NCBI RefSeq assembly: GCF_019334315.1
Contig: NZ_JAHWGL010000001.1
Coordinates: forward strand, 62,001 to 126,000
Direction: 5' to 3'
DNA length: 64,000 nucleotides
From: Hymenobacter profundi
GTDB lineage: Bacteria; Bacteroidota; Bacteroidia; Cytophagales; Hymenobacteraceae
Shown here: piece after piece, positions 19,861 to 47,332 of the stretch
How the letters are laid out: each line of letters starts with the position of its first letter
Numbering within the stretch: position 1 is the first letter of the stretch
The notes under the pieces: generated by a model
What the model was told of the DNA's origin: nothing
Database searches by the model: none
What the model saw: only the letters and a program-made list of their open reading frames with translations
Translations under genes and position numbers: made by a program

Positions 19861-19868
19861 CCCCTGTC

Positions 19869-23967: not shown

Positions 23968-23970
23968 AGA

Positions 23971-25437: not shown

Positions 25438-25560
25438 TGAATGAGGGGATTGGAAGTGGAAAGATGAAGTAGATTCAATAGTTTGCCTATAATAGTACTA
25501 CTATTTTCCGACCGCAAAAGCATGGCGGACTGGATTTTCCGTAGTCCATTTCTAAACCCA

Positions 25561-26001
25561 ATGACAAAGAACTTATCCGGGGGCTGCATGATGCTCCTGC
25601 TAACGGCCTGTGCCACCACACGGCCCGCCGCTGTACAGGGGCCCATCCGGCAGGTGCTCACCACCCAAGCCGCCGCCTGGAACCGCGGCGACATACCCGC
25701 CTTTATGGAGGGCTACTGGCGCTCCGATTCTTTGGTATTCTTGGGGCGTAAGGGTCCTACCTACGGCTGGCAGCAAACCCTCGACAACTACCGTCGCGGC
25801 TACCCCGATGCTGCCGCTATGGGCCAACTCGCCTTTTCCGACCTCCACATCACCCCTGATGGCCCTCAGGCTGCCCACGTGGTAGGCCGCTGGCACCTGA
25901 CCCGCCCCACCGCCGGCGATATAGGCGGGCACTTCTTATTGGTTTTTCGACAAGTGAAAGGCCAGTGGGTGATTGTAGCCGACCACACGAATAATGAATA
26001 G
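25561..26001 (+). CDS. SnoaL/DUF4440-like lipoprotein
   Basis: ATG 25561 gives 146 residues with lipoprotein signal GGCMMLLLTAC (lipobox Cys17). The mature part matches the small cone-fold SnoaL/NTF2-like layout: QVLTTQAAAWNRGDIPAFMEGYW, SLVFLGRKGPTYGWQQTLDNY, then HVVGRWHLTR and HFLLVFRQVKGQWVIVADH. This family binds or modifies small molecules in various ways and the role is unknown. An alternative start at 25483 would place the lipobox too deep. Confidence 0.83.
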   Translation: MTKNLSGGCMMLLLTACATTRPAAVQGPIRQVLTTQAAAWNRGDIPAFMEGYWRSDSLVFLGRKGPTYGWQQTLDNYRRGYPDAAAMGQLAFSDLHITPDGPQAAHVVGRWHLTRPTAGDIGGHFLLVFRQVKGQWVIVADHTNNE

Positions 26002-26030
26002 GTGGTGAAGTGGTGGGATAGTAAATTAAA

Positions 26031-26147
26031 AAAGCGTGTGTCATCCTGAGCTTGCGAAGGACCTTCTGCCAGTTGAACGAGTCGTTGTTACACTTGTCGT
26101 TCTACCGTGATAAGGTCCTTCGCTGCGCTCAGGATGACAGACGCTTT
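26031..26147. repeat. dispersed hairpin repeat, TGTCATCCTGAG family
   Basis: Imperfect arms beginning AAAAAGCGTGTGTCATCC flank a core containing AGTTGAACGAGTCGTT. Short GTGGTGAAGT-type words continue the inversion outside. This copy differs from its mirror (41046-41162) at 26068, 26088, 26092, 26093 and 26095, the only substitutions found between the two arms apart from the central stem. Confidence 0.88.
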
Positions 26148-26183
26148 TTACTTCACCACTTCACCATCTCACTACTTCACCAC

Positions 26184-27323
26184 CTACTCCTCTGCTGTTT
26201 CGTCTTTTTGCTTTTCGCTTTCGACGGCGGGAATGGCTTCGGTGAAGATGAGGTTATGGGCAGCGGCGTGCTCGGCGGCTTGCACGGTATCCTGCACCAG
26301 CAGCATTTCCACGTTTTCGTCGCGCAGGTCGTCGGATACTTTTTCTACTAATTGGGCACGGTTAGGAAGCTGCACGTCGCGGATGTAGATGGCCAGCACG
26401 CGGCCGGGGTGGCGGCGCACCACCTCCCGGTAGATGTTGGCATCTTCCTGGCCCGAGTCGCCGATAAGCACGAAAGGCAGCTTGGGGTAGGTGAGCAGCA
26501 GGTTGTCGATTTCTTTGAGCTTGTGGCCGTGGTGGGCCGACTCAGCTTTCTTATCGGCGCGTTTCAGGCCCATATCACGCAGCAGGAGCGGGCCGGGCGG
26601 AATATCGTTGAGGTGCAAGAAATCTTCCAGTAAATCGTACAAATTCCAGGGCGAGCTGCTGACGTAGAAGAAGGGATTATTGCGCTTGCCATTGCGTCCT
26701 AGCTGTAGCTGCCTATAGAACTCGGCTACCCCCTTGAAGGGTAGGCGCGAGCGGGCATTGCGCAGCAACACTGTGCGCGCCATACGCAGCAAGTGCGTAG
26801 CAGAAGTCTGAATGACGGTATCATCCAGATCGGAGATAATGCCGTATTCGGCGTCGTCGGGTGGGATGAGCACATGGGCCTGGGCGCGAAGGCCATCGGG
26901 GAGCGTGAAGGGCGCCGGCACCTGTTGTAGCAGCGTGTCTACCGGGTACCAGAGGTAGTCGATGGGCTCGGGCAGGCGCTCGGGGGCCAGGTTCACCGTA
27001 AAGTAGCCCTCATCGTCCGTCAGAACCGGGTGCTCAACGCCATCGGCCGCCCGCACGATAACCTGCGCGCCGCGAATTTCGTCGCTATCAAAGCGCCGGT
27101 ACATGTTCAGCAGGTTGTGGAGGCGCGAGTCGTTGGAGTCGGGCTCGGTGATGCCTTTGTCGGTGAGTAGGCGGCCCTTCACGTAGAGGCGGTTGGGGGT
27201 GCCGTAACTGCGGTAGGGAAGCAGCTGCAACGGCGCCAGCATACCCAGGCGCTGGCGAGTGCGTGTCAAAAAGTCGTCGGCCCGCTCGGCTAGGTCGCTG
27301 ATTTTATCGCGGAGAGAAGTCAT
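26184..27323 (-). CDS. App1-family phosphatase (DUF2183), phosphatidate-phosphatase-like
   Basis: The protein has 379 residues. An N-terminal region with a beta-rich domain (about 45-150) is followed by the App1 catalytic domain, opening with D-x-D-x-T at 165-169 (SDLDDTVIQTS). Then come NPFFYVSSSPWNLYDLL, FLHLNDIPPGPLLLRD and a GDSGQEDANIY block with the late acidic residues. Family members dephosphorylate phosphatidate in yeast; bacterial substrates are largely unknown. ATG 27323. No signal peptide. Confidence 0.9.
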   Translation of the reverse strand: MTSLRDKISDLAERADDFLTRTRQRLGMLAPLQLLPYRSYGTPNRLYVKGRLLTDKGITEPDSNDSRLHNLLNMYRRFDSDEIRGAQVIVRAADGVEHPVLTDDEGYFTVNLAPERLPEPIDYLWYPVDTLLQQVPAPFTLPDGLRAQAHVLIPPDDAEYGIISDLDDTVIQTSATHLLRMARTVLLRNARSRLPFKGVAEFYRQLQLGRNGKRNNPFFYVSSSPWNLYDLLEDFLHLNDIPPGPLLLRDMGLKRADKKAESAHHGHKLKEIDNLLLTYPKLPFVLIGDSGQEDANIYREVVRRHPGRVLAIYIRDVQLPNRAQLVEKVSDDLRDENVEMLLVQDTVQAAEHAAAHNLIFTEAIPAVESEKQKDETAEE

Positions 27324-27392
27324 AGGGTGCGAAAAGAAAACGAGTAATCTTCCTACCCTACGGGCCGTACGGGGTAGGAAGTTGCCCCGCCC

Positions 27393-28136
27393 CTACGTCC
27401 AACGACTCAAAAACTGCGTGAAGGCCTCCTTGTACTGGTCACTCACGGGCAGCGTCTGGTCCTCAATCTGCACCGAGTTGCGCGTCACGGCCCGGATTTT
27501 ATCCAGGGCTACAATGGTAGAGCGGTGAATGCGCATGAAGCGCCGGGCGGGCAGCTTTTCTTCCAGCACCTTCAGGCTGGTGAGCGAGAGCAGGGGCCGC
27601 GCGTCACCCGTGAGATGCACCTTCACATAGTCCTTCAGTCCTTCTATATAGAGTATGTCCTGGAAGGCCACGCGCACCAATTGATATTCAATTTTCAGAA
27701 AGAGGTACTCTTCCTCGGGCTCGGGTGGGGCGGCGGGTAGGGCAGTTGGCTGCGCAAGCGTAGCATAGGCGTGGGCCTTGGTGGCCGCCCGCAAAAACTC
27801 CTCGTAGTTGAACGGCTTTACGAGGTAGTCCAGCGCATCGACGCGGTAGCCATCCAGGGCAAACTGGTTGTAGGCGGTAGTGAAAATGATGCGCGGCCCC
27901 GTGCCCGGCCGGCCCCGGTCGAGCACCCGTGCCAGCTCTAGGCCGCTGAGGTCGGGCATTTGGATGTCCAGGAAAATCAGGTCGATGTCGGGTAGCTGGT
28001 GCAGGCCCTGCAAGGCTTCCACGGCGCTGCTGTAGCGGCCTACCAGCTCTAGGAAAGGCGTTTGCTCCACAAACGCGCACACCAGCCCCAGGGCCAGCGG
28101 CTCATCATCAACGGCAATGCAACGGAGGGTTTTCAA
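27393..28136 (-). CDS. LytTR-family DNA-binding response regulator
   Basis: The protein has 247 residues. The receiver domain has the acidic pair Asp10-Asp11, phosphoacceptor Asp57 in LIFLDIQMPD and Lys in DYLVKPF. The C-terminal LytTR DNA-binding domain covers about 147-246 (FLKIEYQLVRVAFQDILYIEGLKDYVKVHL, RFMRIHRSTIVALDKI). The start is TTG 28136; it begins exactly at MKTLRCIAVDDE and no ATG is near. It lies 43 bp after the sensor kinase gene, forming a two-component pair. Confidence 0.93.
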   Translation of the reverse strand: MKTLRCIAVDDEPLALGLVCAFVEQTPFLELVGRYSSAVEALQGLHQLPDIDLIFLDIQMPDLSGLELARVLDRGRPGTGPRIIFTTAYNQFALDGYRVDALDYLVKPFNYEEFLRAATKAHAYATLAQPTALPAAPPEPEEEYLFLKIEYQLVRVAFQDILYIEGLKDYVKVHLTGDARPLLSLTSLKVLEEKLPARRFMRIHRSTIVALDKIRAVTRNSVQIEDQTLPVSDQYKEAFTQFLSRWT

Positions 28137-28179
28137 GTAAAAAGTAAGAAGTAAGAATTAGAAATTGGTCTTTCAGTGC

Positions 28180-29307
28180 TCATTCAGCGTCCGCGGATGC
28201 CAAATGGGGCTTGACGGCTTGTACGCTAGGCACCACTTCCAAGCTAAGCAATACCCGAAACTCGTGGCCGGCCGTGGCTTCTTCTACGCTGAGCTGGTAG
28301 CGCTGGGGGTAGAGCAAATCGAGGCGACGGCGGGTGTTGGTGAGGCCAATGCCGCTGCCTACCTCCTCTACGGCGGGGCGCTTGTCGGGGAACACGGTGT
28401 TGCGCACCTCCAGCGTGAGCGTGCCGTTGTGCTGGTGCAGGCCAATGTAGATCTGGCTGGGTAGGGTGGCACTCACGCCGTGCTTAAAGGCATTCTCCAC
28501 AAACGGCAGCAGCAGCATGGGGGCAATGGGTACGTCGCGCAGCAGGGGGGTAGGGCGCTCGAAGGTGACGGTCACTTTATCCGTCAGGCGCAGTTGCATC
28601 AGCGAAATATAGTCCTGCACGAAGGATACCTCCTGGCTAAGCAGGGTAGTGCTAGACTGGGTTTCGTAGAGCACGTAGCGCATCATGCGCGAAAGCGTGT
28701 GAATGGCCTGCCGGGCCAGCTCACCGTTCACCACCGTGAGGGCGTAGATGTTGTTAAGCGTATTAAAAAAGAAGTGCGGGTTGATCTGCGCTTTCAGAAA
28801 CGACAGCTCGGCGGTGGTTTGCTGCTGCTCCAACTCGCGCCGGATTTGCGCGTCGTTTTGCCACTTGCGCACCACTGCCACGCTTGTACTGATGCCCAGC
28901 ACCAGCATCGAAATCAGTAGCGTGCCCATATCGAACCACCCCGCCGACGACCGGCGCCGCGACGGGCTGCCATCTGGGTGAAACGCTTTATGCATCAGCT
29001 CGGGCAGATGCAGCAGGTTTTCGATAAGTGAGTTGAGCGCCAGCACCGCCACCAACGAAGCAGCCAGCACCGCAATAAACCAGCCCGTGTGCCCCCGAAA
29101 TAACAAGCGCGGCACCGCCACCTGCGCATTAAAATAAAACAGGGCTACCCACAGCAGGAGCAGCAAAGACTGGCGCACCCAAAACTGCGGGGGCAGCTGC
29201 ACACTCCAGGTAAGCGGCTGGGCAAGCAGCAGGGCCGAGCCAAACATCACCCACAAAAGCGGGCGCGAAAAGCGTTGTGCGAAGTGCCGAAAGGTGAAAG
29301 AAGTCAT
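28180..29307 (-). CDS. LytS-type sensor histidine kinase
   Basis: The protein has 375 residues with four hydrophobic segments (about 17-32, 44-60, 75-95, 128-146). A His_kinase (PF06580-like) domain has phosphoacceptor His178 in LKAQINPHFFFNTLNNIY, and a C-terminal HATPase has PFVENAFKHGV and GSGIGLTNTRRRL. No extracellular sensor domain is apparent, so it probably senses through the membrane part. It is cotranscribed with the LytTR regulator and divergent from the receptor gene. Confidence 0.93.
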   Translation of the reverse strand: MTSFTFRHFAQRFSRPLLWVMFGSALLLAQPLTWSVQLPPQFWVRQSLLLLLWVALFYFNAQVAVPRLLFRGHTGWFIAVLAASLVAVLALNSLIENLLHLPELMHKAFHPDGSPSRRRSSAGWFDMGTLLISMLVLGISTSVAVVRKWQNDAQIRRELEQQQTTAELSFLKAQINPHFFFNTLNNIYALTVVNGELARQAIHTLSRMMRYVLYETQSSTTLLSQEVSFVQDYISLMQLRLTDKVTVTFERPTPLLRDVPIAPMLLLPFVENAFKHGVSATLPSQIYIGLHQHNGTLTLEVRNTVFPDKRPAVEEVGSGIGLTNTRRRLDLLYPQRYQLSVEEATAGHEFRVLLSLEVVPSVQAVKPHLASADAE

Positions 29308-29633
29308 AAGGAAAGGAGCATCAGGCTACCAAACATACCGTGCCCTGGGTACCCCAAGTGCTTGCCTCGCCGGTTCCGCAGATTTCACCGACCGATGCAG
29401 GGTATTTTATCTGCCAATAGGTCCCTGAATCACCAGTGCAACATCAATCGGTACAAACGCCCCAACTCATCGGCGTTTGCGGCGAGGCAATCTATTTGTT
29501 TTAGTTGGAAGCAACCCATCTTGTTGTTTTGGGTACTCTGTCGTGAGTCCAAAAAAGTAAAACCAGTATCGGTAGCTGGCTTTGCACGACTTACGTACAC
29601 GCCCCTGACTTCTCTTTTTATTATAACTACTTC
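29308..29633. other. 326-bp divergent intergenic region
   Basis: This lies between the histidine kinase (minus) and the receptor gene (plus) and so should hold both promoters and any LytTR target site. I found no exact TAnnTTTG element or obvious direct repeat, and no gene. Confidence 0.6.
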
Positions 29634-32294
29634 ATGAAAAAGCCTTTATCCTTTGTGAGTTTGTTGCTGTGCGGCCACGTGGCGCTGGCACAAACAACGC
29701 CCGCGGGTCTTACCCTCGTGGGCGGTTCCCGGCCGATGGGCGCAGCCCCGGCAGGAGCCACAAAGGCCGCTGCCGCCGATGCCCGCATCACGGGTACCGT
29801 CGTGGATGCTGGTACCAAAAAGCCGGTACCGTTTGCCACAGTTGCTCTTATTGACACCTCCACCGGTAAGCCTATTGATGGCGCGGCCTGCGACGACGCG
29901 GGTAAGTTTACCATCAGCGGCGTGGCCGCTGGCAGCTACCAGCTTCAGTTCAGCTTCATTGGCTACAAGACGGTAGAGAAACCCATTACGGTAGGCAACG
30001 GCAATCTGAACGTGGGCACCGTATCGCTGGTTTCGGCTACCCAGCAGCTGGCCGAGGTGCGCGTGGAGGGTCAACGCTCTCTGATTGAAGAGAAGGTAGA
30101 CCGCACCGTATACAACGCCGAGCAGGACCAGACCACCCGCGGCGGCGACGCCACCGACGTACTCAAGCGCGTGCCCCTGCTCACGGTAGACCTCGACGGC
30201 AACGTGAGCCTGCGCGGCAACCAAAACGTGCGCGTGCTCATCAACAACAAGCCTTCTACCATCACGGCCAGCAGCATTTCCGACGCGCTGAAGCAGATTC
30301 CGGCCGACGAGATTAAGTCGGTGGAAGTGATTACCTCACCCTCGGCCAAGTACGACGCCGAAGGCTCGGGCGGTATCATCAACATCGTTACCAAGAAAAA
30401 CAACCTGCAAGGCAAAACCCTCAGCGTTGATACCAGCGTGGGCAACCGCTCCTCCAACCTGGGCCTGAACGGGGGCTACCGGGTAGGGCGCATGGGCTTC
30501 TCGCTGGGTGGCTGGGGCCGCACCAGCTACAACACGCCCGGCTCGTTCTCCAACGATCAGCAGACGTTTAATGAGTCCGGCGCGCTGGCTTCTACTACCC
30601 GCCAGCAGGCTGATACGCGTTCTAACAACACCTTCGGGCGCTATACGCTGGGTTGGGATTTCGACATTAACAAGTACAACTCCCTGGCAGCCTCTGTGCG
30701 CTACGGGCTGCGCAGTGGCGTCGACTACCAGGACGACCTGCTCACGCGCTCCGAGTTCTACGGCGAATCGGGTGCCATCCTGCGCCGTACCGGCGACACG
30801 CGCAACGTACGCACCAACGACAAGTCGAACAACGTGGACCTGAGCCTGGGCTACACCCACACCACCGACAAGCCCCAGCAGGAATTTAGCTTCCTGGGCG
30901 TATACAGCCGCAACAACCGCAACAACGACTTCACCAACACCATTACCGATATAATCAATACAACTTCCGGCGCTAGCACTACGCCGTATCGCCTCAAAAA
31001 CCTGAACGAGAACTACAACGAGGAACTGACCGTGCAGGCCGACTACCAGACGCCCATCGGCGACAAGCAGCTGGTAGAGTTTGGGGTGAAGGACATTATG
31101 CGCAAGGTGAACAGCGACTACACCTACCTGCGCGCCGAGGGCTTGTCGGAAGGTGCGTTTGTGCCGCTCGAAAACGCGGGCCTTAATAACGTATTCGACT
31201 ACAAGCAGAACGTGGCTGCCGCCTACGCCGCCTACACGCTTAGCTTCCTGAAGCAGTACACCTTGAAGGCCGGTGCCCGCTACGAGTACACGACCATTGA
31301 TGCCACGTTTGCCAACGAGGCTACCGATACCACCAACATTCCGTCGTACGGGGTGCTGGTGCCCAGCGTAAACCTTTCGCGCAAGCTGGCCAACGGCAAC
31401 GTGATTAAGGCCGCCTACAACCGCCGGATTCAGCGCCCTTCGCTGCGCTACCTGAACCCCAACGTGCAGGCTTCCAACACGCGTAGCCCTTCACAGGGTA
31501 ATCCAACACTGGATCCAGAGTACACCAACAACTACGAGTTGGGCTACAGCACTTTCATCAAAAATATTCTGCTGAATATGTCGGTGTTTGCGCGTAATAC
31601 CACGGGCTCTATTCAGGCAGTGCGCCGGCCGGCCACGCAGCAGGAAATTGAGTCGTACAATTTGTCGCCGGGTGCCATCTTCACCACCTACGACAACATC
31701 GGGCAGGAAAACGCTTACGGCGGTAGCCTGTTTGTGAATGCCAAGATTGGCAACAAATTCACGCTGAACGGTGGCCCCGATTTCTACTACGCCGTGCTGC
31801 GCAACAACGTGGATGACCGCATCTATAACGCCAGTAATGAAGGCTTTGTGATTAGCGGCCGCTTATTTGGTACCTACAATCTCAACGACAATTGGAGCTT
31901 GCAGGCCTTCGGCTTTGCCCGCGGCCGCCAGGTGCAGCTGCAAGGCTACCAGAGCGGGTTTGGGGTATACAGCCTCAGCATCCGCCGCGAGTTTGCAGAG
32001 AAGCGCGGCAGCATTGGCCTGGGCGCCGAAAACTTCTTCTCGCCCAAAATCCCGATTCGTACCGAATTCACCTCGCCGCTGCTGGTGCAAAACAGCGAAA
32101 ACATCCCGAACCGCCTGAATTTCAAAGTAAACTTCAGCTACCGGATTGGCAAGCTGAGCGTGGCCGACGCGCAGCCTCGCCGCCGCCGTCGCTCCGTCAA
32201 CAACGACGACCTGAAAGAGGGTGGCGAAGGCGCCGACCCAAGCACCACGCCAGCTCCGCAGCCAGCGGGCGGTGGTGGCCGCGGCCAGCGCTAA
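29634..32294 (+). CDS. TonB-dependent-type outer-membrane receptor (OMP_b-brl_3 family)
   Basis: The protein has 886 residues with a signal peptide MKKPLSFVSLLLCGHVALAQ. A carboxypeptidase-regulatory-like domain (about 51-140, RITGTVVDAGTKKPVPFATVALID) is followed by a plug domain (DVLKRVPLLTVDLDGNVSLRG) and a large beta barrel. After the last strand (FKVNFSYRIGKLSV) comes a basic, Gly-rich tail, RRRRRSVNNDDLKEGGEG, of the kind seen in this family. The ligand is unknown. No TonB box is obvious. It is divergent from the LytS/LytTR pair, which may regulate it. Confidence 0.93.
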   Translation: MKKPLSFVSLLLCGHVALAQTTPAGLTLVGGSRPMGAAPAGATKAAAADARITGTVVDAGTKKPVPFATVALIDTSTGKPIDGAACDDAGKFTISGVAAGSYQLQFSFIGYKTVEKPITVGNGNLNVGTVSLVSATQQLAEVRVEGQRSLIEEKVDRTVYNAEQDQTTRGGDATDVLKRVPLLTVDLDGNVSLRGNQNVRVLINNKPSTITASSISDALKQIPADEIKSVEVITSPSAKYDAEGSGGIINIVTKKNNLQGKTLSVDTSVGNRSSNLGLNGGYRVGRMGFSLGGWGRTSYNTPGSFSNDQQTFNESGALASTTRQQADTRSNNTFGRYTLGWDFDINKYNSLAASVRYGLRSGVDYQDDLLTRSEFYGESGAILRRTGDTRNVRTNDKSNNVDLSLGYTHTTDKPQQEFSFLGVYSRNNRNNDFTNTITDIINTTSGASTTPYRLKNLNENYNEELTVQADYQTPIGDKQLVEFGVKDIMRKVNSDYTYLRAEGLSEGAFVPLENAGLNNVFDYKQNVAAAYAAYTLSFLKQYTLKAGARYEYTTIDATFANEATDTTNIPSYGVLVPSVNLSRKLANGNVIKAAYNRRIQRPSLRYLNPNVQASNTRSPSQGNPTLDPEYTNNYELGYSTFIKNILLNMSVFARNTTGSIQAVRRPATQQEIESYNLSPGAIFTTYDNIGQENAYGGSLFVNAKIGNKFTLNGGPDFYYAVLRNNVDDRIYNASNEGFVISGRLFGTYNLNDNWSLQAFGFARGRQVQLQGYQSGFGVYSLSIRREFAEKRGSIGLGAENFFSPKIPIRTEFTSPLLVQNSENIPNRLNFKVNFSYRIGKLSVADAQPRRRRRSVNNDDLKEGGEGADPSTTPAPQPAGGGGRGQR

Positions 32295-32352
32295 TAGCCA
32301 GCACACGAAAAGCAGCAGATCTGGCGTACCTACTCTCCCTTTTCTGCGTAAG

Positions 32353-32388
32353 AAAGCTCCGCTCACCAGCTTCGGTGAGCGGAGCTTT
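32353..32388. terminator. terminator of receptor gene, 5 nt before topB start
   Basis: Perfect 15-bp arms AAAGCTCCGCTCACC / GGTGAGCGGAGCTTT with loop AGCTTC, then TGTTT and the ATG of the topoisomerase gene. Confidence 0.82.
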
Positions 32389-32393
32389 TGTTT

Positions 32394-33506
32394 ATGTCGA
32401 CTACTACCACCCCCCGCCCCAAAACCAAGAAGAAGCGCCTCGACCCATTGGAAGAAGCGCACTTGCTCTACAAAGACCCCGCTCGCCAAGCCGAGCTGGC
32501 CGGCCTGCGCTACGCCACCGACGACAAACCGGGCATTACGCGCAAGGCCACTCGCGCCGGAAACTTCACCTATACCTCCGCCAAAGGCGAGAAAATAACC
32601 GATCAGAAGGTGCTGGACCGCATCCACGGCTATGTGATACCGCCGGCCTGGACGGACGTCTGGATTTCGCCTTCGGCGAATGCCCACTTGCAGGTAACTG
32701 GGCGCGATGCCAAGGGCCGCAAGCAGTACCGCTACCACCCGGCCTGGGACCAGGCGCGCAGCCTCACCAAATTCAGCCGGTTACGTGCTTTTGGCGAGCA
32801 ACTGCCCGCCCTGCGCCAGCGCTTGCGCAAAGACCTGGGCCGCCCCAAGCTGGACAAGCAGAAGGTGATTGCGCTGGTGTTGCTGCTGATGGATCAGTCC
32901 TTCATTCGGGTAGGGAACCGGGAGTATGCCAAGAAAAACAAGAGCTACGGCCTGACTACCCTGCGCGACAAGCACGTGAAAATTGAAGGCGACGACGTAC
33001 GCTTCAGCTTTGTGGGCAAAAAAGGCGTACCCCACGACGTGACCTTACACGACCGGAAGCTGGCCCGCCTGGTGCGCAAGTGCAAGGATATACCCGGCCA
33101 GCACTTGTTTCAGTATTATGATGCCACCGGCCACCGCGCCGAGCTGGAATCGGGCGACGTGAACGACTACCTGCACGAGGTAACGGGCATGGCCTTGTCG
33201 GCCAAAGACTTTCGCACCTGGGGCGGCACCGTAAAAATGGTGACGTGTCTGGAAGCCATTCTGGAAGAAGAGCCCGACCTGCCGAAAGACAAAGTACTGA
33301 AGCGTGCCGTGAAGGACGTAGCCGCCGGCCTGGGTAACACGCCCACGGTGTGCTCCAAATACTACATTCACCCCCAAGTAGTCGACTTATTCAAGTCCGA
33401 TAAGCTCATCGACTACCTCCGCCGCCACGACGTAGACCCCACCGAAAATGACCTGCTTTCCCCTACTGAGCACATGGTGCTGGATATGCTAGCGGAAGTG
33501 AAATAG
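32394..33506 (+). CDS. DNA topoisomerase IB (poxvirus-like)
   Basis: Topoisomerase IB relaxes supercoils by a 3'-phosphotyrosyl intermediate. The protein has 370 residues from ATG 32394; the first ~17 residues are a Thr/Pro/Lys tail. Conserved blocks are IPPAWTDVWISP, GRDAKGRKQYRYHPAWD (103-119), IRVGN, KDFRTWGGT and NTPTVCSKYYIHP, the last holding the catalytic Tyr. The start follows a terminator hairpin by only 5 nt. The two copies converge on the palindrome axis. Confidence 0.95.
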   Translation: MSTTTTPRPKTKKKRLDPLEEAHLLYKDPARQAELAGLRYATDDKPGITRKATRAGNFTYTSAKGEKITDQKVLDRIHGYVIPPAWTDVWISPSANAHLQVTGRDAKGRKQYRYHPAWDQARSLTKFSRLRAFGEQLPALRQRLRKDLGRPKLDKQKVIALVLLLMDQSFIRVGNREYAKKNKSYGLTTLRDKHVKIEGDDVRFSFVGKKGVPHDVTLHDRKLARLVRKCKDIPGQHLFQYYDATGHRAELESGDVNDYLHEVTGMALSAKDFRTWGGTVKMVTCLEAILEEEPDLPKDKVLKRAVKDVAAGLGNTPTVCSKYYIHPQVVDLFKSDKLIDYLRRHDVDPTENDLLSPTEHMVLDMLAEVK

Positions 33507-33540
33507 TGAGTGGTGAATTTGTGAAGTGGTGCATGCAAAA

Positions 33541-33652
33541 GCGGCTGTCATCCTGAGCAGCGCGAAGGACCTTATGCCAGTTGAACGAGTCGTTAACACG
33601 ATTATCGTTCTTGTGTGAGAAGGTCCTTCGTGCTGCTCAGGATGACAGCCGC
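33541..33652. repeat. dispersed hairpin repeat at the palindrome axis
   Basis: Stem 33541-33573 pairs with 33620-33652 with a single mismatch (33562 G against 33631 T). The 46-bp core 33574-33619 is asymmetric and reads like the core of the 5648 and 26031 copies (CCAGTTGAACGAGTCGTT). Outside the stem the giant inverted repeat continues perfectly into both topoisomerase genes. Confidence 0.93.
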
Positions 33653-33686
33653 TTTTGCATGCACCACTTCACAAATTCACCACTCA

Positions 33687-34799
33687 CTATTTCACTTCCG
33701 CTAGCATATCCAGCACCATGTGCTCAGTAGGGGAAAGCAGGTCATTTTCGGTGGGGTCTACGTCGTGGCGGCGGAGGTAGTCGATGAGCTTATCGGACTT
33801 GAATAAGTCGACTACTTGGGGGTGAATGTAGTATTTGGAGCACACCGTGGGCGTGTTACCCAGGCCGGCGGCTACGTCCTTCACGGCACGCTTCAGTACT
33901 TTGTCTTTCGGCAGGTCGGGCTCTTCTTCCAGAATGGCTTCCAGACACGTCACCATTTTTACGGTGCCGCCCCAGGTGCGAAAGTCTTTGGCCGACAAGG
34001 CCATGCCCGTTACCTCGTGCAGGTAGTCGTTCACGTCGCCCGATTCCAGCTCGGCGCGGTGGCCGGTGGCATCATAATACTGAAACAAGTGCTGGCCGGG
34101 TATATCCTTGCACTTGCGCACCAGGCGGGCCAGCTTCCGGTCGTGTAAGGTCACGTCGTGGGGTACGCCTTTTTTGCCCACAAAGCTGAAGCGTACGTCG
34201 TCGCCTTCAATTTTCACGTGCTTGTCGCGCAGGGTAGTCAGGCCGTAGCTCTTGTTTTTCTTGGCATACTCCCGGTTCCCTACCCGAATGAAGGACTGAT
34301 CCATCAGCAGCAACACCAGCGCAATCACCTTCTGCTTGTCCAGCTTGGGGCGGCCCAGGTCTTTGCGCAAGCGCTGGCGCAGGGCGGGCAGTTGCTCGCC
34401 AAAAGCACGTAACCGGCTGAATTTGGTGAGGCTGCGCGCCTGGTCCCAGGCCGGGTGGTAGCGGTACTGCTTGCGGCCCTTGGCATCGCGCCCAGTTACC
34501 TGCAAGTGGGCATTCGCCGAAGGCGAAATCCAGACGTCCGTCCAGGCCGGCGGTATCACATAGCCGTGGATGCGGTCCAGCACCTTCTGATCGGTTATTT
34601 TCTCGCCTTTGGCGGAGGTATAGGTGAAGTTTCCGGCGCGAGTGGCCTTGCGCGTAATGCCCGGTTTGTCGTCGGTGGCGTAGCGCAGGCCGGCCAGCTC
34701 GGCTTGGCGAGCGGGGTCTTTGTAGAGCAAGTGCGCTTCTTCCAATGGGTCGAGGCGCTTCTTCTTGGTTTTGGGGCGGGGGGTGGTAGTAGTCGACAT
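33687..34799 (-). CDS. DNA topoisomerase IB (mirror copy)
   Basis: Identical in protein sequence to the copy at 32394-33506, here on the opposite strand and also pointing at the axis. ATG at 34799. The two topoisomerase IB genes end 180 bp apart, tail to tail. Confidence 0.94.
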   Translation of the reverse strand: MSTTTTPRPKTKKKRLDPLEEAHLLYKDPARQAELAGLRYATDDKPGITRKATRAGNFTYTSAKGEKITDQKVLDRIHGYVIPPAWTDVWISPSANAHLQVTGRDAKGRKQYRYHPAWDQARSLTKFSRLRAFGEQLPALRQRLRKDLGRPKLDKQKVIALVLLLMDQSFIRVGNREYAKKNKSYGLTTLRDKHVKIEGDDVRFSFVGKKGVPHDVTLHDRKLARLVRKCKDIPGQHLFQYYDATGHRAELESGDVNDYLHEVTGMALSAKDFRTWGGTVKMVTCLEAILEEEPDLPKDKVLKRAVKDVAAGLGNTPTVCSKYYIHPQVVDLFKSDKLIDYLRRHDVDPTENDLLSPTEHMVLDMLAEVK

Positions 34800-34804
34800 A
34801 AACA

Positions 34805-34840
34805 AAAGCTCCGCTCACCGAAGCTGGTGAGCGGAGCTTT
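34805..34840. terminator. terminator of receptor gene (mirror copy)
   Basis: Same 15-bp perfect stem as at 32353-32388, located 5 nt before the minus-strand topoisomerase start. Confidence 0.82.
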
Positions 34841-34898
34841 CTTACGCAGAAAAGGGAGAGTAGGTACGCCAGATCTGCTGCTTTTCGTGTGCTGGCTA

Positions 34899-37559
34899 TT
34901 AGCGCTGGCCGCGGCCACCACCGCCCGCTGGCTGCGGAGCTGGCGTGGTGCTTGGGTCGGCGCCTTCGCCACCCTCTTTCAGGTCGTCGTTGTTGACGGA
35001 GCGACGGCGGCGGCGAGGCTGCGCGTCGGCCACGCTCAGCTTGCCAATCCGGTAGCTGAAGTTTACTTTGAAATTCAGGCGGTTCGGGATGTTTTCGCTG
35101 TTTTGCACCAGCAGCGGCGAGGTGAATTCGGTACGAATCGGGATTTTGGGCGAGAAGAAGTTTTCGGCGCCCAGGCCAATGCTGCCGCGCTTCTCTGCAA
35201 ACTCGCGGCGGATGCTGAGGCTGTATACCCCAAACCCGCTCTGGTAGCCTTGCAGCTGCACCTGGCGGCCGCGGGCAAAGCCGAAGGCCTGCAAGCTCCA
35301 ATTGTCGTTGAGATTGTAGGTACCAAATAAGCGGCCGCTAATCACAAAGCCTTCATTACTGGCGTTATAGATGCGGTCATCCACGTTGTTGCGCAGCACG
35401 GCGTAGTAGAAATCGGGGCCACCGTTCAGCGTGAATTTGTTGCCAATCTTGGCATTCACAAACAGGCTACCGCCGTAAGCGTTTTCCTGCCCGATGTTGT
35501 CGTAGGTGGTGAAGATGGCACCCGGCGACAAATTGTACGACTCAATTTCCTGCTGCGTGGCCGGCCGGCGCACTGCCTGAATAGAGCCCGTGGTATTACG
35601 CGCAAACACCGACATATTCAGCAGAATATTTTTGATGAAAGTGCTGTAGCCCAACTCGTAGTTGTTGGTGTACTCTGGATCCAGTGTTGGATTACCCTGT
35701 GAAGGGCTACGCGTGTTGGAAGCCTGCACGTTGGGGTTCAGGTAGCGCAGCGAAGGGCGCTGAATCCGGCGGTTGTAGGCGGCCTTAATCACGTTGCCGT
35801 TGGCCAGCTTGCGCGAAAGGTTTACGCTGGGCACCAGCACCCCGTACGACGGAATGTTGGTGGTATCGGTAGCCTCGTTGGCAAACGTGGCATCAATGGT
35901 CGTGTACTCGTAGCGGGCACCGGCCTTCAAGGTGTACTGCTTCAGGAAGCTAAGCGTGTAGGCGGCGTAGGCGGCAGCCACGTTCTGCTTGTAGTCGAAT
36001 ACGTTATTAAGGCCCGCGTTTTCGAGCGGCACAAACGCACCTTCCGACAAGCCCTCGGCGCGCAGGTAGGTGTAGTCGCTGTTCACCTTGCGCATAATGT
36101 CCTTCACCCCAAACTCTACCAGCTGCTTGTCGCCGATGGGCGTCTGGTAGTCGGCCTGCACGGTCAGTTCCTCGTTGTAGTTCTCGTTCAGGTTTTTGAG
36201 GCGATACGGCGTAGTGCTAGCGCCGGAAGTTGTATTGATTATATCGGTAATGGTGTTGGTGAAGTCGTTGTTGCGGTTGTTGCGGCTGTATACGCCCAGG
36301 AAGCTAAATTCCTGCTGGGGCTTGTCGGTGGTGTGGGTGTAGCCCAGGCTCAGGTCCACGTTGTTCGACTTGTCGTTGGTGCGTACGTTGCGCGTGTCGC
36401 CGGTACGGCGCAGGATGGCACCCGATTCGCCGTAGAACTCGGAGCGCGTGAGCAGGTCGTCCTGGTAGTCGACGCCACTGCGCAGCCCGTAGCGCACAGA
36501 GGCTGCCAGGGAGTTGTACTTGTTAATGTCGAAATCCCAACCCAGCGTATAGCGCCCGAAGGTGTTGTTAGAACGCGTATCAGCCTGCTGGCGGGTAGTA
36601 GAAGCCAGCGCGCCGGACTCATTAAACGTCTGCTGATCGTTGGAGAACGAGCCGGGCGTGTTGTAGCTGGTGCGGCCCCAGCCACCCAGCGAGAAGCCCA
36701 TGCGCCCTACCCGGTAGCCCCCGTTCAGGCCCAGGTTGGAGGAGCGGTTGCCCACGCTGGTATCAACGCTGAGGGTTTTGCCTTGCAGGTTGTTTTTCTT
36801 GGTAACGATGTTGATGATACCGCCCGAGCCTTCGGCGTCGTACTTGGCCGAGGGTGAGGTAATCACTTCCACCGACTTAATCTCGTCGGCCGGAATCTGC
36901 TTCAGCGCGTCGGAAATGCTGCTGGCCGTGATGGTAGAAGGCTTGTTGTTGATGAGCACGCGCACGTTTTGGTTGCCGCGCAGGCTCACGTTGCCGTCGA
37001 GGTCTACCGTGAGCAGGGGCACGCGCTTGAGTACGTCGGTGGCGTCGCCGCCGCGGGTGGTCTGGTCCTGCTCGGCGTTGTATACGGTGCGGTCTACCTT
37101 CTCTTCAATCAGAGAGCGTTGACCCTCCACGCGCACCTCGGCCAGCTGCTGGGTAGCCGAAACCAGCGATACGGTGCCCACGTTCAGATTGCCGTTGCCT
37201 ACCGTAATGGGTTTCTCTACCGTCTTGTAGCCAATGAAGCTGAACTGAAGCTGGTAGCTGCCAGCGGCCACGCCGCTGATGGTAAACTTACCCGCGTCGT
37301 CGCAGGCCGCGCCATCAATAGGCTTACCGGTGGAGGTGTCAATAAGAGCAACTGTGGCAAACGGTACCGGCTTTTTGGTACCAGCATCCACGACGGTACC
37401 CGTGATGCGGGCATCGGCGGCAGCGGCCTTTGTGGCTCCTGCCGGGGCTGCGCCCATCGGCCGGGAACCGCCCACGAGGGTAAGACCCGCGGGCGTTGTT
37501 TGTGCCAGCGCCACGTGGCCGCACAGCAACAAACTCACAAAGGATAAAGGCTTTTTCAT
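34899..37559 (-). CDS. TonB-dependent-type outer-membrane receptor (mirror copy)
   Basis: 886 residues, identical to 29634-32294: signal peptide, carboxypeptidase-like domain, plug, barrel and the basic SVNNDDLKEGGEG tail are all intact. Divergent from the kinase copy at 37886. Confidence 0.93.
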   Translation of the reverse strand: MKKPLSFVSLLLCGHVALAQTTPAGLTLVGGSRPMGAAPAGATKAAAADARITGTVVDAGTKKPVPFATVALIDTSTGKPIDGAACDDAGKFTISGVAAGSYQLQFSFIGYKTVEKPITVGNGNLNVGTVSLVSATQQLAEVRVEGQRSLIEEKVDRTVYNAEQDQTTRGGDATDVLKRVPLLTVDLDGNVSLRGNQNVRVLINNKPSTITASSISDALKQIPADEIKSVEVITSPSAKYDAEGSGGIINIVTKKNNLQGKTLSVDTSVGNRSSNLGLNGGYRVGRMGFSLGGWGRTSYNTPGSFSNDQQTFNESGALASTTRQQADTRSNNTFGRYTLGWDFDINKYNSLAASVRYGLRSGVDYQDDLLTRSEFYGESGAILRRTGDTRNVRTNDKSNNVDLSLGYTHTTDKPQQEFSFLGVYSRNNRNNDFTNTITDIINTTSGASTTPYRLKNLNENYNEELTVQADYQTPIGDKQLVEFGVKDIMRKVNSDYTYLRAEGLSEGAFVPLENAGLNNVFDYKQNVAAAYAAYTLSFLKQYTLKAGARYEYTTIDATFANEATDTTNIPSYGVLVPSVNLSRKLANGNVIKAAYNRRIQRPSLRYLNPNVQASNTRSPSQGNPTLDPEYTNNYELGYSTFIKNILLNMSVFARNTTGSIQAVRRPATQQEIESYNLSPGAIFTTYDNIGQENAYGGSLFVNAKIGNKFTLNGGPDFYYAVLRNNVDDRIYNASNEGFVISGRLFGTYNLNDNWSLQAFGFARGRQVQLQGYQSGFGVYSLSIRREFAEKRGSIGLGAENFFSPKIPIRTEFTSPLLVQNSENIPNRLNFKVNFSYRIGKLSVADAQPRRRRRSVNNDDLKEGGEGADPSTTPAPQPAGGGGRGQR

Positions 37560-37885
37560 GAAGTAGTTATAATAAAAAGAGAAGTCAGGGGCGTGTACGT
37601 AAGTCGTGCAAAGCCAGCTACCGATACTGGTTTTACTTTTTTGGACTCACGACAGAGTACCCAAAACAACAAGATGGGTTGCTTCCAACTAAAACAAATA
37701 GATTGCCTCGCCGCAAACGCCGATGAGTTGGGGCGTTTGTACCGATTGATGTTGCACTGGTGATTCAGGGACCTATTGGCAGATAAAATACCCTGCATCG
37801 GTCGGTGAAATCTGCGGAACCGGCGAGGCAAGCACTTGGGGTACCCAGGGCACGGTATGTTTGGTAGCCTGATGCTCCTTTCCTT
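37560..37885. other. 326-bp divergent intergenic region (mirror copy)
   Basis: Reverse complement of 29308-29633. It holds the promoters of the receptor and kinase copies; nothing further is recognised. Confidence 0.6.
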
Positions 37886-39013
37886 ATGACTTCTTTCACC
37901 TTTCGGCACTTCGCACAACGCTTTTCGCGCCCGCTTTTGTGGGTGATGTTTGGCTCGGCCCTGCTGCTTGCCCAGCCGCTTACCTGGAGTGTGCAGCTGC
38001 CCCCGCAGTTTTGGGTGCGCCAGTCTTTGCTGCTCCTGCTGTGGGTAGCCCTGTTTTATTTTAATGCGCAGGTGGCGGTGCCGCGCTTGTTATTTCGGGG
38101 GCACACGGGCTGGTTTATTGCGGTGCTGGCTGCTTCGTTGGTGGCGGTGCTGGCGCTCAACTCACTTATCGAAAACCTGCTGCATCTGCCCGAGCTGATG
38201 CATAAAGCGTTTCACCCAGATGGCAGCCCGTCGCGGCGCCGGTCGTCGGCGGGGTGGTTCGATATGGGCACGCTACTGATTTCGATGCTGGTGCTGGGCA
38301 TCAGTACAAGCGTGGCAGTGGTGCGCAAGTGGCAAAACGACGCGCAAATCCGGCGCGAGTTGGAGCAGCAGCAAACCACCGCCGAGCTGTCGTTTCTGAA
38401 AGCGCAGATCAACCCGCACTTCTTTTTTAATACGCTTAACAACATCTACGCCCTCACGGTGGTGAACGGTGAGCTGGCCCGGCAGGCCATTCACACGCTT
38501 TCGCGCATGATGCGCTACGTGCTCTACGAAACCCAGTCTAGCACTACCCTGCTTAGCCAGGAGGTATCCTTCGTGCAGGACTATATTTCGCTGATGCAAC
38601 TGCGCCTGACGGATAAAGTGACCGTCACCTTCGAGCGCCCTACCCCCCTGCTGCGCGACGTACCCATTGCCCCCATGCTGCTGCTGCCGTTTGTGGAGAA
38701 TGCCTTTAAGCACGGCGTGAGTGCCACCCTACCCAGCCAGATCTACATTGGCCTGCACCAGCACAACGGCACGCTCACGCTGGAGGTGCGCAACACCGTG
38801 TTCCCCGACAAGCGCCCCGCCGTAGAGGAGGTAGGCAGCGGCATTGGCCTCACCAACACCCGCCGTCGCCTCGATTTGCTCTACCCCCAGCGCTACCAGC
38901 TCAGCGTAGAAGAAGCCACGGCCGGCCACGAGTTTCGGGTATTGCTTAGCTTGGAAGTGGTGCCTAGCGTACAAGCCGTCAAGCCCCATTTGGCATCCGC
39001 GGACGCTGAATGA
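37886..39013 (+). CDS. LytS-type sensor histidine kinase (mirror copy)
   Basis: 375 residues, identical to 28180-29307, with four membrane segments and His178 in INPHFFFNTLNN. ATG 37886. Followed after 43 bp by its LytTR regulator. Confidence 0.93.
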   Translation: MTSFTFRHFAQRFSRPLLWVMFGSALLLAQPLTWSVQLPPQFWVRQSLLLLLWVALFYFNAQVAVPRLLFRGHTGWFIAVLAASLVAVLALNSLIENLLHLPELMHKAFHPDGSPSRRRSSAGWFDMGTLLISMLVLGISTSVAVVRKWQNDAQIRRELEQQQTTAELSFLKAQINPHFFFNTLNNIYALTVVNGELARQAIHTLSRMMRYVLYETQSSTTLLSQEVSFVQDYISLMQLRLTDKVTVTFERPTPLLRDVPIAPMLLLPFVENAFKHGVSATLPSQIYIGLHQHNGTLTLEVRNTVFPDKRPAVEEVGSGIGLTNTRRRLDLLYPQRYQLSVEEATAGHEFRVLLSLEVVPSVQAVKPHLASADAE

Positions 39014-39056
39014 GCACTGAAAGACCAATTTCTAATTCTTACTTCTTACTTTTTAC

Positions 39057-39800
39057 TTGAAAACCCTCCGTTGCATTGCCGTTGATGATGAGCCGCTGGC
39101 CCTGGGGCTGGTGTGCGCGTTTGTGGAGCAAACGCCTTTCCTAGAGCTGGTAGGCCGCTACAGCAGCGCCGTGGAAGCCTTGCAGGGCCTGCACCAGCTA
39201 CCCGACATCGACCTGATTTTCCTGGACATCCAAATGCCCGACCTCAGCGGCCTAGAGCTGGCACGGGTGCTCGACCGGGGCCGGCCGGGCACGGGGCCGC
39301 GCATCATTTTCACTACCGCCTACAACCAGTTTGCCCTGGATGGCTACCGCGTCGATGCGCTGGACTACCTCGTAAAGCCGTTCAACTACGAGGAGTTTTT
39401 GCGGGCGGCCACCAAGGCCCACGCCTATGCTACGCTTGCGCAGCCAACTGCCCTACCCGCCGCCCCACCCGAGCCCGAGGAAGAGTACCTCTTTCTGAAA
39501 ATTGAATATCAATTGGTGCGCGTGGCCTTCCAGGACATACTCTATATAGAAGGACTGAAGGACTATGTGAAGGTGCATCTCACGGGTGACGCGCGGCCCC
39601 TGCTCTCGCTCACCAGCCTGAAGGTGCTGGAAGAAAAGCTGCCCGCCCGGCGCTTCATGCGCATTCACCGCTCTACCATTGTAGCCCTGGATAAAATCCG
39701 GGCCGTGACGCGCAACTCGGTGCAGATTGAGGACCAGACGCTGCCCGTGAGTGACCAGTACAAGGAGGCCTTCACGCAGTTTTTGAGTCGTTGGACGTAG
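39057..39800 (+). CDS. LytTR-family response regulator (mirror copy)
   Basis: 247 residues, identical to 27393-28136. The TTG start reads directly on this strand: TTGAAAACCCTCCGTTGC at 39057. Receiver Asp57 and the LytTR domain are intact. Confidence 0.92.
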   Translation: MKTLRCIAVDDEPLALGLVCAFVEQTPFLELVGRYSSAVEALQGLHQLPDIDLIFLDIQMPDLSGLELARVLDRGRPGTGPRIIFTTAYNQFALDGYRVDALDYLVKPFNYEEFLRAATKAHAYATLAQPTALPAAPPEPEEEYLFLKIEYQLVRVAFQDILYIEGLKDYVKVHLTGDARPLLSLTSLKVLEEKLPARRFMRIHRSTIVALDKIRAVTRNSVQIEDQTLPVSDQYKEAFTQFLSRWT

Positions 39801-39869
39801 GGGCGGGGCAACTTCCTACCCCGTACGGCCCGTAGGGTAGGAAGATTACTCGTTTTCTTTTCGCACCCT

Positions 39870-41009
39870 ATGACTTCTCTCCGCGATAAAATCAGCGACC
39901 TAGCCGAGCGGGCCGACGACTTTTTGACACGCACTCGCCAGCGCCTGGGTATGCTGGCGCCGTTGCAGCTGCTTCCCTACCGCAGTTACGGCACCCCCAA
40001 CCGCCTCTACGTGAAGGGCCGCCTACTCACCGACAAAGGCATCACCGAGCCCGACTCCAACGACTCGCGCCTCCACAACCTGCTGAACATGTACCGGCGC
40101 TTTGATAGCGACGAAATTCGCGGCGCGCAGGTTATCGTGCGGGCGGCCGATGGCGTTGAGCACCCGGTTCTGACGGACGATGAGGGCTACTTTACGGTGA
40201 ACCTGGCCCCCGAGCGCCTGCCCGAGCCCATCGACTACCTCTGGTACCCGGTAGACACGCTGCTACAACAGGTGCCGGCGCCCTTCACGCTCCCCGATGG
40301 CCTTCGCGCCCAGGCCCATGTGCTCATCCCACCCGACGACGCCGAATACGGCATTATCTCCGATCTGGATGATACCGTCATTCAGACTTCTGCTACGCAC
40401 TTGCTGCGTATGGCGCGCACAGTGTTGCTGCGCAATGCCCGCTCGCGCCTACCCTTCAAGGGGGTAGCCGAGTTCTATAGGCAGCTACAGCTAGGACGCA
40501 ATGGCAAGCGCAATAATCCCTTCTTCTACGTCAGCAGCTCGCCCTGGAATTTGTACGATTTACTGGAAGATTTCTTGCACCTCAACGATATTCCGCCCGG
40601 CCCGCTCCTGCTGCGTGATATGGGCCTGAAACGCGCCGATAAGAAAGCTGAGTCGGCCCACCACGGCCACAAGCTCAAAGAAATCGACAACCTGCTGCTC
40701 ACCTACCCCAAGCTGCCTTTCGTGCTTATCGGCGACTCGGGCCAGGAAGATGCCAACATCTACCGGGAGGTGGTGCGCCGCCACCCCGGCCGCGTGCTGG
40801 CCATCTACATCCGCGACGTGCAGCTTCCTAACCGTGCCCAATTAGTAGAAAAAGTATCCGACGACCTGCGCGACGAAAACGTGGAAATGCTGCTGGTGCA
40901 GGATACCGTGCAAGCCGCCGAGCACGCCGCTGCCCATAACCTCATCTTCACCGAAGCCATTCCCGCCGTCGAAAGCGAAAAGCAAAAAGACGAAACAGCA
41001 GAGGAGTAG
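39870..41009 (+). CDS. App1-family phosphatase (mirror copy)
   Basis: 379 residues, identical to 26184-27323, with the DLDDT catalytic motif at 165-169. Starts at ATG 39870, 69 bp after the response regulator on the same strand. Confidence 0.9.
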   Translation: MTSLRDKISDLAERADDFLTRTRQRLGMLAPLQLLPYRSYGTPNRLYVKGRLLTDKGITEPDSNDSRLHNLLNMYRRFDSDEIRGAQVIVRAADGVEHPVLTDDEGYFTVNLAPERLPEPIDYLWYPVDTLLQQVPAPFTLPDGLRAQAHVLIPPDDAEYGIISDLDDTVIQTSATHLLRMARTVLLRNARSRLPFKGVAEFYRQLQLGRNGKRNNPFFYVSSSPWNLYDLLEDFLHLNDIPPGPLLLRDMGLKRADKKAESAHHGHKLKEIDNLLLTYPKLPFVLIGDSGQEDANIYREVVRRHPGRVLAIYIRDVQLPNRAQLVEKVSDDLRDENVEMLLVQDTVQAAEHAAAHNLIFTEAIPAVESEKQKDETAEE

Positions 41010-41045
41010 GTGGTGAAGTAGTGAGATGGTGAAGTGGTGAAGTAA

Positions 41046-41162
41046 AAAGCGTCTGTCATCCTGAGCGCAGCGAAGGACCTTATCACGGTAGAACGACCAC
41101 CGTACCAACGACTCGTTCAACTGGTAGAAGGTCCTTCGCAAGCTCAGGATGACACACGCTTT
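41046..41162. repeat. dispersed hairpin repeat (mirror copy, five substitutions)
   Basis: Mirror of 26031-26147 but changed at 41098, 41100, 41101, 41105 and 41125, all inside the 28-bp core. The plus strand here reads GAACGACCACCGTACCAACG. Four of the five changes are to C on this strand (G on the other). Confidence 0.88.
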
Positions 41163-41191
41163 TTTAATTTACTATCCCACCACTTCACCAC

Positions 41192-41632
41192 CTATTCATT
41201 ATTCGTGTGGTCGGCTACAATCACCCACTGGCCTTTCACTTGTCGAAAAACCAATAAGAAGTGCCCGCCTATATCGCCGGCGGTGGGGCGGGTCAGGTGC
41301 CAGCGGCCTACCACGTGGGCAGCCTGAGGGCCATCAGGGGTGATGTGGAGGTCGGAAAAGGCGAGTTGGCCCATAGCGGCAGCATCGGGGTAGCCGCGAC
41401 GGTAGTTGTCGAGGGTTTGCTGCCAGCCGTAGGTAGGACCCTTACGCCCCAAGAATACCAAAGAATCGGAGCGCCAGTAGCCCTCCATAAAGGCGGGTAT
41501 GTCGCCGCGGTTCCAGGCGGCGGCTTGGGTGGTGAGCACCTGCCGGATGGGCCCCTGTACAGCGGCGGGCCGTGTGGTGGCACAGGCCGTTAGCAGGAGC
41601 ATCATGCAGCCCCCGGATAAGTTCTTTGTCAT
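41192..41632 (-). CDS. SnoaL/DUF4440-like lipoprotein (mirror copy)
   Basis: 146 residues from ATG 41632, identical to 25561-26001, with lipobox LTAC (Cys17) and the SnoaL-like fold pattern. Confidence 0.82.
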   Translation of the reverse strand: MTKNLSGGCMMLLLTACATTRPAAVQGPIRQVLTTQAAAWNRGDIPAFMEGYWRSDSLVFLGRKGPTYGWQQTLDNYRRGYPDAAAMGQLAFSDLHITPDGPQAAHVVGRWHLTRPTAGDIGGHFLLVFRQVKGQWVIVADHTNNE

Positions 41633-41755
41633 TGGGTTTAGAAATGGACTACGGAAAATCCAGTCCGCCATGCTTTTGCGGTCGGAAAATAGTAGTACTA
41701 TTATAGGCAAACTATTGAATCTACTTCATCTTTCCACTTCCAATCCCCTCATTCA

Positions 41756-43222: not shown

Positions 43223-43225
43223 TCT

Positions 43226-47324: not shown

Positions 47325-47332
47325 GACAGGGG

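What the first reader, a model, noticed from the sequence alone, without database searches (positions are those of the whole stretch)
33541..33652. The turn-around sits exactly in the hairpin of a dispersed repeat
The axis falls in a TGTCATCCTGAG-family hairpin whose 46-bp core is asymmetric and normal for the family, so the core is a single native copy. The stem mismatch 33562/33631 suggests the first 12 or so bases of the right stem are still native and that the switch to copying the left arm happened outside 33631. This is the footprint expected if a 3' end folded back through its own short inverted repeat and primed synthesis. An MDA chimera or an assembler crossing the stem k-mers would look the same. 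Because the core is an ordinary dispersed element, a dedicated telomere is less likely.
Basis: partly seen in the sequence, partly recalled or inferred. Interest (0 to 1): 0.75.

Follow-up and report, generated by a model that had tools for sequence, protein, structure and literature searches.

The report
Palindromic contig from assembly error
A 191-kb bacterial contig that reads the same on both strands was very probably made by the assembly software turning round inside a common hairpin repeat; the real neighbouring DNA sits on another contig, so there is most likely no giant palindrome or chromosome end here.

Summary
In detail: the mirror axis lies in the loop of a dispersed hairpin repeat (stems 33528-33573 and 33620-33665, loop 33574-33619). 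The palindrome itself is almost certainly not real. The whole contig C110 (191,192 b) is its own reverse complement from first to last base. Outside the axis hairpin, its arms differ only inside two other hairpin copies of the same family, and there the right arm shares exact words with copies on other contigs. The true right neighbour of topoisomerase IB is very probably contig C197. C197 ends in the same hairpin, and its terminal genes follow topoisomerase IB in 37 of 39 relatives with room to see and in a relative whose main contig is 5.14 Mb. In the listed matches of 81 genus genomes only this one has topoisomerase IB face to face. Sampled contig ends overlap by exactly 77 b, as in a k=77 de Bruijn graph, and the repeat is over-represented at contig starts. 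The sister species' contig begins the same turn at the orthologous hairpin and stops 6 b past the divergence, so fold-back or loop-flipped reads, or low-k carry-over, may have fed the error; this is unresolved.

The parts
3193..33561 (+). left arm (X) of the contig-wide palindrome as it lies in the window; taken as native single-copy chromosome
   Evidence: self-comparison; both ends of X lie on one contig, about 101 and 94 kb apart, in H. citatus and G027 (the middle was not compared)
33666..64000 (-). right arm: false reverse-complement copy of X in place of the native right flank
33528..33573 (+). left stem of the dispersed hairpin (X-side stem, G at 33562 as in relative G027)
33574..33619 (+). 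asymmetric 46-b loop holding the mirror axis (near 33596.5)
33620..33665 (-). right stem, identical over 46 b to the end of contig C197 (Y-side stem)
33632..33665 (.). 34-b stretch shared by both stems; the false switch from native flank to copied arm lies here
   Evidence: mismatch at 33631 on its inner side, divergence from C197 at 33666 on its outer side
32388..33506 (+). DNA topoisomerase IB gene, last native gene before the hairpin
   Evidence: PF01028, PF21338
33687..34805 (-). false second copy of the topoisomerase IB gene
26068..26095 (+). loop of another family copy in the left arm where the arms differ by 5 bases
41098..41125 (-). mirror of 26068-26095 in the right arm; the right-arm copy shares a 60-b exact stretch with a different repeat copy on contig C198

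Best explanation
The palindrome is an assembly error. In the cell the chromosome most likely runs topoisomerase IB, hairpin repeat, then the genes now at the end of contig C197. A short-read de Bruijn assembler (final word length 77) entered the hairpin from the topoisomerase side, passed the loop and left through the copy of the stem that leads back into its own reverse complement. The 95.6-kb contig was thereby written out twice, head to head, and the real right flank was left as the separate contig C197. Shown: the end-to-end palindrome, a neighbour on C197 with genus-wide gene order, 77-b contig overlaps, enrichment of the repeat at contig starts, and repeat-only differences between arms that share exact words with other copies. 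Inferred: that the assembler made the turn, and why the graph offered the wrong exit, either merging of the 34-b identical stem words at small k, or a minority of fold-back or loop-flipped reads at the hairpin.
For: C110 is palindromic from base 1 to 191,192; its first 300 b recur in full only at its other end. Arms are identical except at the axis and in two other family hairpins; there the right-arm copy shares exact stretches with other copies, 60 b with C198 and 28 b with C68, the latter inside a broken loop. C197 ends in this hairpin with the Y-side stem. Relatives of its terminal genes lie downstream of topoisomerase IB on the opposite strand in 37 of 39 Hymenobacteraceae loci with room to see; 0 of 41 loci (flanks up to 10 kb) has a second topoisomerase IB. 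G027 (main contig 5,140,525 b) shows topoisomerase IB, hairpin, 533-aa, 536-aa and exonuclease genes. In the listed matches of 81 genus genomes only G000 has the inverted pair. Four contig-end pairs overlap or coincide by exactly 77 b: C33/C199, C216/C35, C121/C195, C1/C220. The repeat's 13-mer lies within 120 b of the start of 21 of the 49 contigs C1-C49, about 0.5 expected. C110's outer end, from its base 149, maps mid-contig in two relatives.
Against: The natively joined sequence holds no word longer than 34 b on both strands, so a k=77 graph of purely native reads should have passed straight through; something non-native must have entered. C197's last 77 bases carry the loop in the orientation seen from the topoisomerase side, and with stem base A, a combination neither simple orientation gives. 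The sister species' topoisomerase contig also turns back at the orthologous hairpin, for exactly 77 b, while none of 64 sampled ends of G000 turns back for more than 28 b; a biological or library cause that recurs at this hairpin is not excluded. 2 of 39 relatives (L049, L050) have the partner genes on the other side of topoisomerase IB. The hairpin itself is seen at the site in three genomes (G000, H. citatus, G027) and not in G032 or G046. No reads were available.
Confidence: 0.94

Rival explanations
1. Library fold-back: during library making a 3' end in the right stem annealed to the left stem and copied back into X; such chimeric reads created the false edge, which the assembler then followed. 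This is a possible contributing cause of the error, not an alternative to an unreal palindrome.
For: The hairpin is very strong. X contigs of two species (G000, H. citatus) both turn back at it. Chimeric reads from inverted repeats are described for sonicated human libraries (PMC10908179, abstract) and inverted chimeras dominate MDA (PMC1855051, abstract).
Against: None of 64 sampled ends of G000, many of which stop in the same repeat, turns back on itself for more than 28 b. Reads are unavailable.
Confidence: 0.35
2. The hairpin loop flips in the living population by exchange between its two stems, so reads hold both loop orientations next to each flank; the resulting symmetric graph was resolved wrongly. 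Also a contributing cause.
For: Both the topoisomerase side and C197 read into the same loop orientation in G000, and likewise C11 and C10 in H. citatus, which native DNA of one orientation should not give at k=77.
Against: Fold-back reads or low-k carry-over give the same ends. C197's stem base A followed by that loop fits neither pure orientation exactly. Only three species were compared at this site.
Confidence: 0.2
3. A true 95.6-kb-arm inverted duplication or palindromic replicon made in vivo by template switching at the hairpin.
For: A short inverted repeat at the axis is what that pathway needs (ODIRA in yeast, PMC10766183, abstract).
Against: The contig ends mirror each other to the base. 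A short-read assembler would be expected to collapse true identical arms (inference). C197 holds a native flank. No complete junction in the relatives examined. The outer end is not a terminus in two relatives.
Confidence: 0.03
4. A covalently closed hairpin telomere of a linear replicon, assembled through its closed end.
For: Reading through a closed hairpin end would give such a palindrome.
Against: The core is an ordinary copy of a high-copy family. No ResT/TelK domain is detected in the genome (of the 14 control genomes only Synechococcus elongatus gave a match, so sensitivity is not proven there). The site is internal to a 5.14-Mb contig in G027.
Confidence: 0.01

Closest known systems
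Palindromic (self-reverse-complement) misassembly at an inverted repeat in a de Bruijn graph (recalled as a kind; no paper describing it was read)
   Same: Contig equals its own reverse complement, the axis is in an inverted repeat, the ends are identical, a native neighbour is left as a separate contig, and contig overlaps equal k
   Different: Nothing essential; arm differences confined to repeats and sharing words with other repeat copies are an extra sign of post-assembly correction or local filling
Fold-back or inverted chimeras of library preparation and MDA (PMC10908179, PMC1855051; abstracts read)
   Same: Turn at a short inverted repeat or short complementary stretch
   Different: Those are single molecules or reads; a 95.6-kb mirrored arm ending at the same base on both sides needs an assembler
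Repetitive extragenic palindromes (REP/BIME-like elements)
   Same: High-copy, dispersed, hairpin-forming; this copy is intergenic
   Different: The unit here is about 140-200 b with 46-b stems and a 46-b loop; PMC3733652 describes REPs as 20-40 b (search listing only). A link to a transposase was not tested

Membership tests
palindromic assembly misjoin | contig is its own reverse complement over its full length | tested here: met
   192 b, 99.967%
palindromic assembly misjoin | native flank exists elsewhere in the same assembly and ends at the same repeat | tested here: met
   C197; gene order in 37 of 39 relatives; G027
palindromic assembly misjoin | graph-type assembly with constant end overlaps | tested here: met
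   four contig-end pairs with exactly 77 b among 67 sampled ends (3 of them all N)
palindromic assembly misjoin | single read depth over the arm and no read support across the axis | not testable with these tools
   no reads held
hairpin telomere of a linear replicon | telomere resolvase (ResT/TelK) encoded | tested here: not met
   PF16684, 0 of 1 genome; control matched in 1 of 14 genomes (Synechococcus elongatus)
hairpin telomere of a linear replicon | site is a terminus | tested here: not met
   orthologous site is internal in G027 and a right flank is known (C197)
in vivo inverted duplication | novel inverted junction present in cellular DNA | not testable with these tools
   needs reads or PCR
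in vivo inverted duplication | junction seen in related genomes | tested here: not met
   0 of 80 other genus genomes in the listed matches, (weak matches not listed); 0 of 41 loci with two topoisomerase IB genes; but the H. citatus contig turns for 6 b past the divergence and ends
REP/BIME-type dispersed repeat | hundreds of dispersed hairpin copies | tested here: met
   13-mer 236 per strand, control 0; about 40 scored places
REP/BIME-type dispersed repeat | associated REP-type (RAYT) transposase | not tested
   no search made

The most novel reading that the evidence does not exclude
The 46-b loop of this hairpin, and perhaps of other copies of the family, flips orientation in living Hymenobacter cells by exchange between the stems, or fold-back junctions form at it in vivo at a level that enters sequencing data. 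That would explain why two species' assemblies fail in the same way at the same orthologous hairpin.
Probability: 0.12. Interest if true: 0.4.

Novelty: not a real feature. Interest (0 to 1): 0.1.

Why it matters
It removes a false 95.6-kb inverted duplication and a false giant palindrome from consideration and names the likely correct join (C110 left half to reverse-complemented C197). As a caution, high-copy hairpin repeats in Hymenobacter break short-read assemblies and can fold a contig back on itself, here duplicating about 1.8% of a draft genome, which may add to its apparent contamination (4.99; the link was not tested).

Tried and rejected
Telomere: rejected because the core is a common repeat, no ResT/TelK domain was found, and the site is internal in G027. 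Real inverted duplication: rejected for the end-to-end symmetry, the C197 flank and the congeners without it. An explanation by k=77 merging of native stems alone was rejected, because the longest both-strand word of the native joint is 34 b (71 b in H. citatus, 27 b in the G027 stretch). I first thought the native loop orientation might be the reverse of the window's + strand, since C197 reads into the same loop orientation as X. G027 has the window's orientation next to topoisomerase IB (alignment score 21 against 12), so I take the left half as native; C197's loop stays unexplained. Rfam: no family at the gathering score in 33400-33800. Paper searches on palindromic contigs, Hymenobacter repeats, de Bruijn hairpins and the 13-mer listed no title or abstract start on this repeat; only the listed rows were seen, and the three papers holding the 13-mer are, by title, on unrelated subjects. 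led to the fold-back and MDA papers. Of 70 loci, 29 outside Hymenobacteraceae were set aside before the counts. The contig-end sample is not random: many contigs were chosen because one search had hit them; three of its 67 ends read only N, and 33 of 67 hold the core motif within 200 b, so about half do not. Of 39 H. citatus ends, five besides C11_3 start with palindromes of 22-66 b (C2_5 66, C15_5 33, C8_5 27, C25_5 23, C28_3 22) without the repeat motif.

Full report
What is there. The mirror axis of the window lies in the 46-b loop (33574-33619) of a hairpin with two 46-b stems (33528-33573, 33620-33665) that differ at one pair, 33562/33631. The fold is far stronger than that of shuffled sequence (z -16.69). 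The element belongs to a high-copy dispersed family.

The palindrome is the whole contig. The window is C110:62001-126000 of a 220-contig, 5.24-Mb draft. C110 is 191,192 b and aligns to its own reverse complement from the first to the last base at 99.967%. Its first 300 bases recur in full only at its other end; three further matches are 23-37 b. It is the longest contig among those whose length was shown; the next is 120,555 b. Of 30 contigs with both ends sampled only C110 has mirrored ends.

Where the arms differ. Apart from the axis, the two arms differ only at contig 88068-88095 versus 103098-103125 (window 26068-26095 versus 41098-41125) and 13413-13441 versus 177753-177780, each inside the loop of another copy of the same family. 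At the first site a 22-b word of the right-arm version occurs in the assembly only there and on C198; the right-arm copy is 93% identical to the C198 copy, with a 60-b exact stretch, against 89% for the left-arm copy. At the second site a 27-b word occurs only there and on C68; 28 b match the C68 copy exactly, inside a right-arm loop whose remaining order is broken, while the left-arm copy aligns to C68 over its length at 87%. Mutation of a real second arm would scatter; borrowing from other repeat copies only inside repeats is what correction or gap filling with misplaced short reads would do. That last sentence is inference.

The native neighbour. Contig C197 (25,239 b) ends inside this hairpin. 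Its reverse complement and the window's right stem are identical over 33620-33665 and part at 33666. C197's terminal genes, read away from the hairpin, are a 533-aa protein (opposite strand to topoisomerase IB), a 536-aa protein (both without a Pfam match) and an exonuclease/GIY-YIG protein. Among 41 Hymenobacteraceae loci of topoisomerase IB (40 Hymenobacter, 1 Solirubrum), two contigs stop within 204 b. Of the other 39, 37 carry the 533-aa relative downstream on the opposite strand followed by the 536-aa relative (in L070 after about 3 kb of other sequence), and 36 of these 37 also carry the exonuclease. L049 and L050 have these genes on the other side. None of the 41 has a second topoisomerase IB within its flanks. 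In G027 (3 contigs; C1 is 5,140,525 b) the order is topoisomerase IB (95% identical), a hairpin of the same family, the 533-aa (85%), 536-aa (88%) and exonuclease (98% over the 195 aa inside the stretch) genes. G032 and G046 have the gene order but not this hairpin. All of 81 genus genomes, the window's own and H. citatus included, have the topoisomerase IB end, and in the listed matches only G000 has it twice face to face; G004 has two same-strand hits far apart on one contig (its list is cut at weak matches).

Position of the switch. The X side and the C197 side share 34 identical bases outside the mismatch; in the right stem these are 33632-33665, and the switch to the copied arm must lie there. 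G027 has the G-type stem and the window's loop orientation next to topoisomerase IB, so the left half plus the hairpin to 33665 is taken as native.

The outer end. The first 2 kb of C110, from base 149, map inside long contigs of both relatives (H. citatus C11 at 456 kb of 557 kb; G027 C1 at 1.94 Mb), about 101 and 94 kb from topoisomerase IB. The two ends of X thus lie on one contig at a fitting distance, and the outer end is an ordinary break; the middle was not compared.

How the error arose. Four pairs of contig ends in the sample overlap or coincide by exactly 77 b, and five pairs of H. citatus ends share exactly their first 77 b; this is the mark of a de Bruijn graph with k = 77. The family's 13-mer lies within 120 b of the start of 21 of the 49 contigs C1-C49, about 0.5 expected from 472 matches in 5.24 Mb, so the family is a main breaker of this assembly. 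The natively joined site has no word longer than 34 b on both strands. Merging can thus occur at k up to 34 (33 is, from memory, a standard intermediate step of SPAdes) but not at 77 from native reads alone. C197's final 77 bases align to C110:95528-95604, beginning exactly where X and the C197 flank part, with one mismatch, and continue into the same loop orientation as X. H. citatus shows the same: its Y contig C10 ends at a 77-mer shared with X, and its X contig C11 continues through the loop and 6 b into its own reverse complement, its last 77 b being the reverse complement of its own sequence. So non-native joins were probably in both graphs. Library fold-backs, loop flipping in the cell, or carry-over from low k could supply them; I cannot choose without reads. 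None of these makes the 95.6-kb second arm real.

Literature seen. PMC10908179, PMC10766183 and PMC1855051: abstract and outline only. PMC3733652 and the rest: search listings only. SPAdes behaviour and the notion of palindromic misassembly are recalled, not looked up.

Verdict. Ordinary assembly artefact at a common hairpin repeat. The finding's observation stands, its cautious preference against a telomere stands, and in vivo fold-back synthesis is neither shown nor needed.

Noticed in passing
window 5653-5755, 26039-26141, 33528-33665; G000 genome-wide: High-copy hairpin repeat family (236 exact 13-mers on each strand) also present in H. citatus and G027. First-look candidate counts, a crude proxy, are high in these two (352 for G061, 325 for G027), also high in a few others (295, 278) and near 30-60 in many congeners. 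How it spreads is unknown.
   Followed up: partly
window 33528-33665 versus L141 (H. citatus) and L220 (G027): At the orthologous site the two stems have changed together between species (for example CATCC/GGATG here and CCTCC/GGAGG in G027), as if one stem is repaired from the other.
   Followed up: no
L140, L141 (H. citatus BT507 contigs C10 and C11): An independent assembly breaks at the same hairpin and its topoisomerase IB contig turns back on itself for exactly 77 b.
   Followed up: yes
C197 3' end (L040): C197 carries stem base A (Y type) followed by the loop in X orientation, a combination that neither simple orientation of the native hairpin gives.
   Followed up: partly
L049, L050: In two Hymenobacter genomes the partner genes of topoisomerase IB lie upstream instead of downstream, a local rearrangement.
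   Followed up: no
G000:C99, C111, C132 first 400 b: These contig starts begin with N (withheld or masked stretches), so they could not be tested.
   Followed up: no
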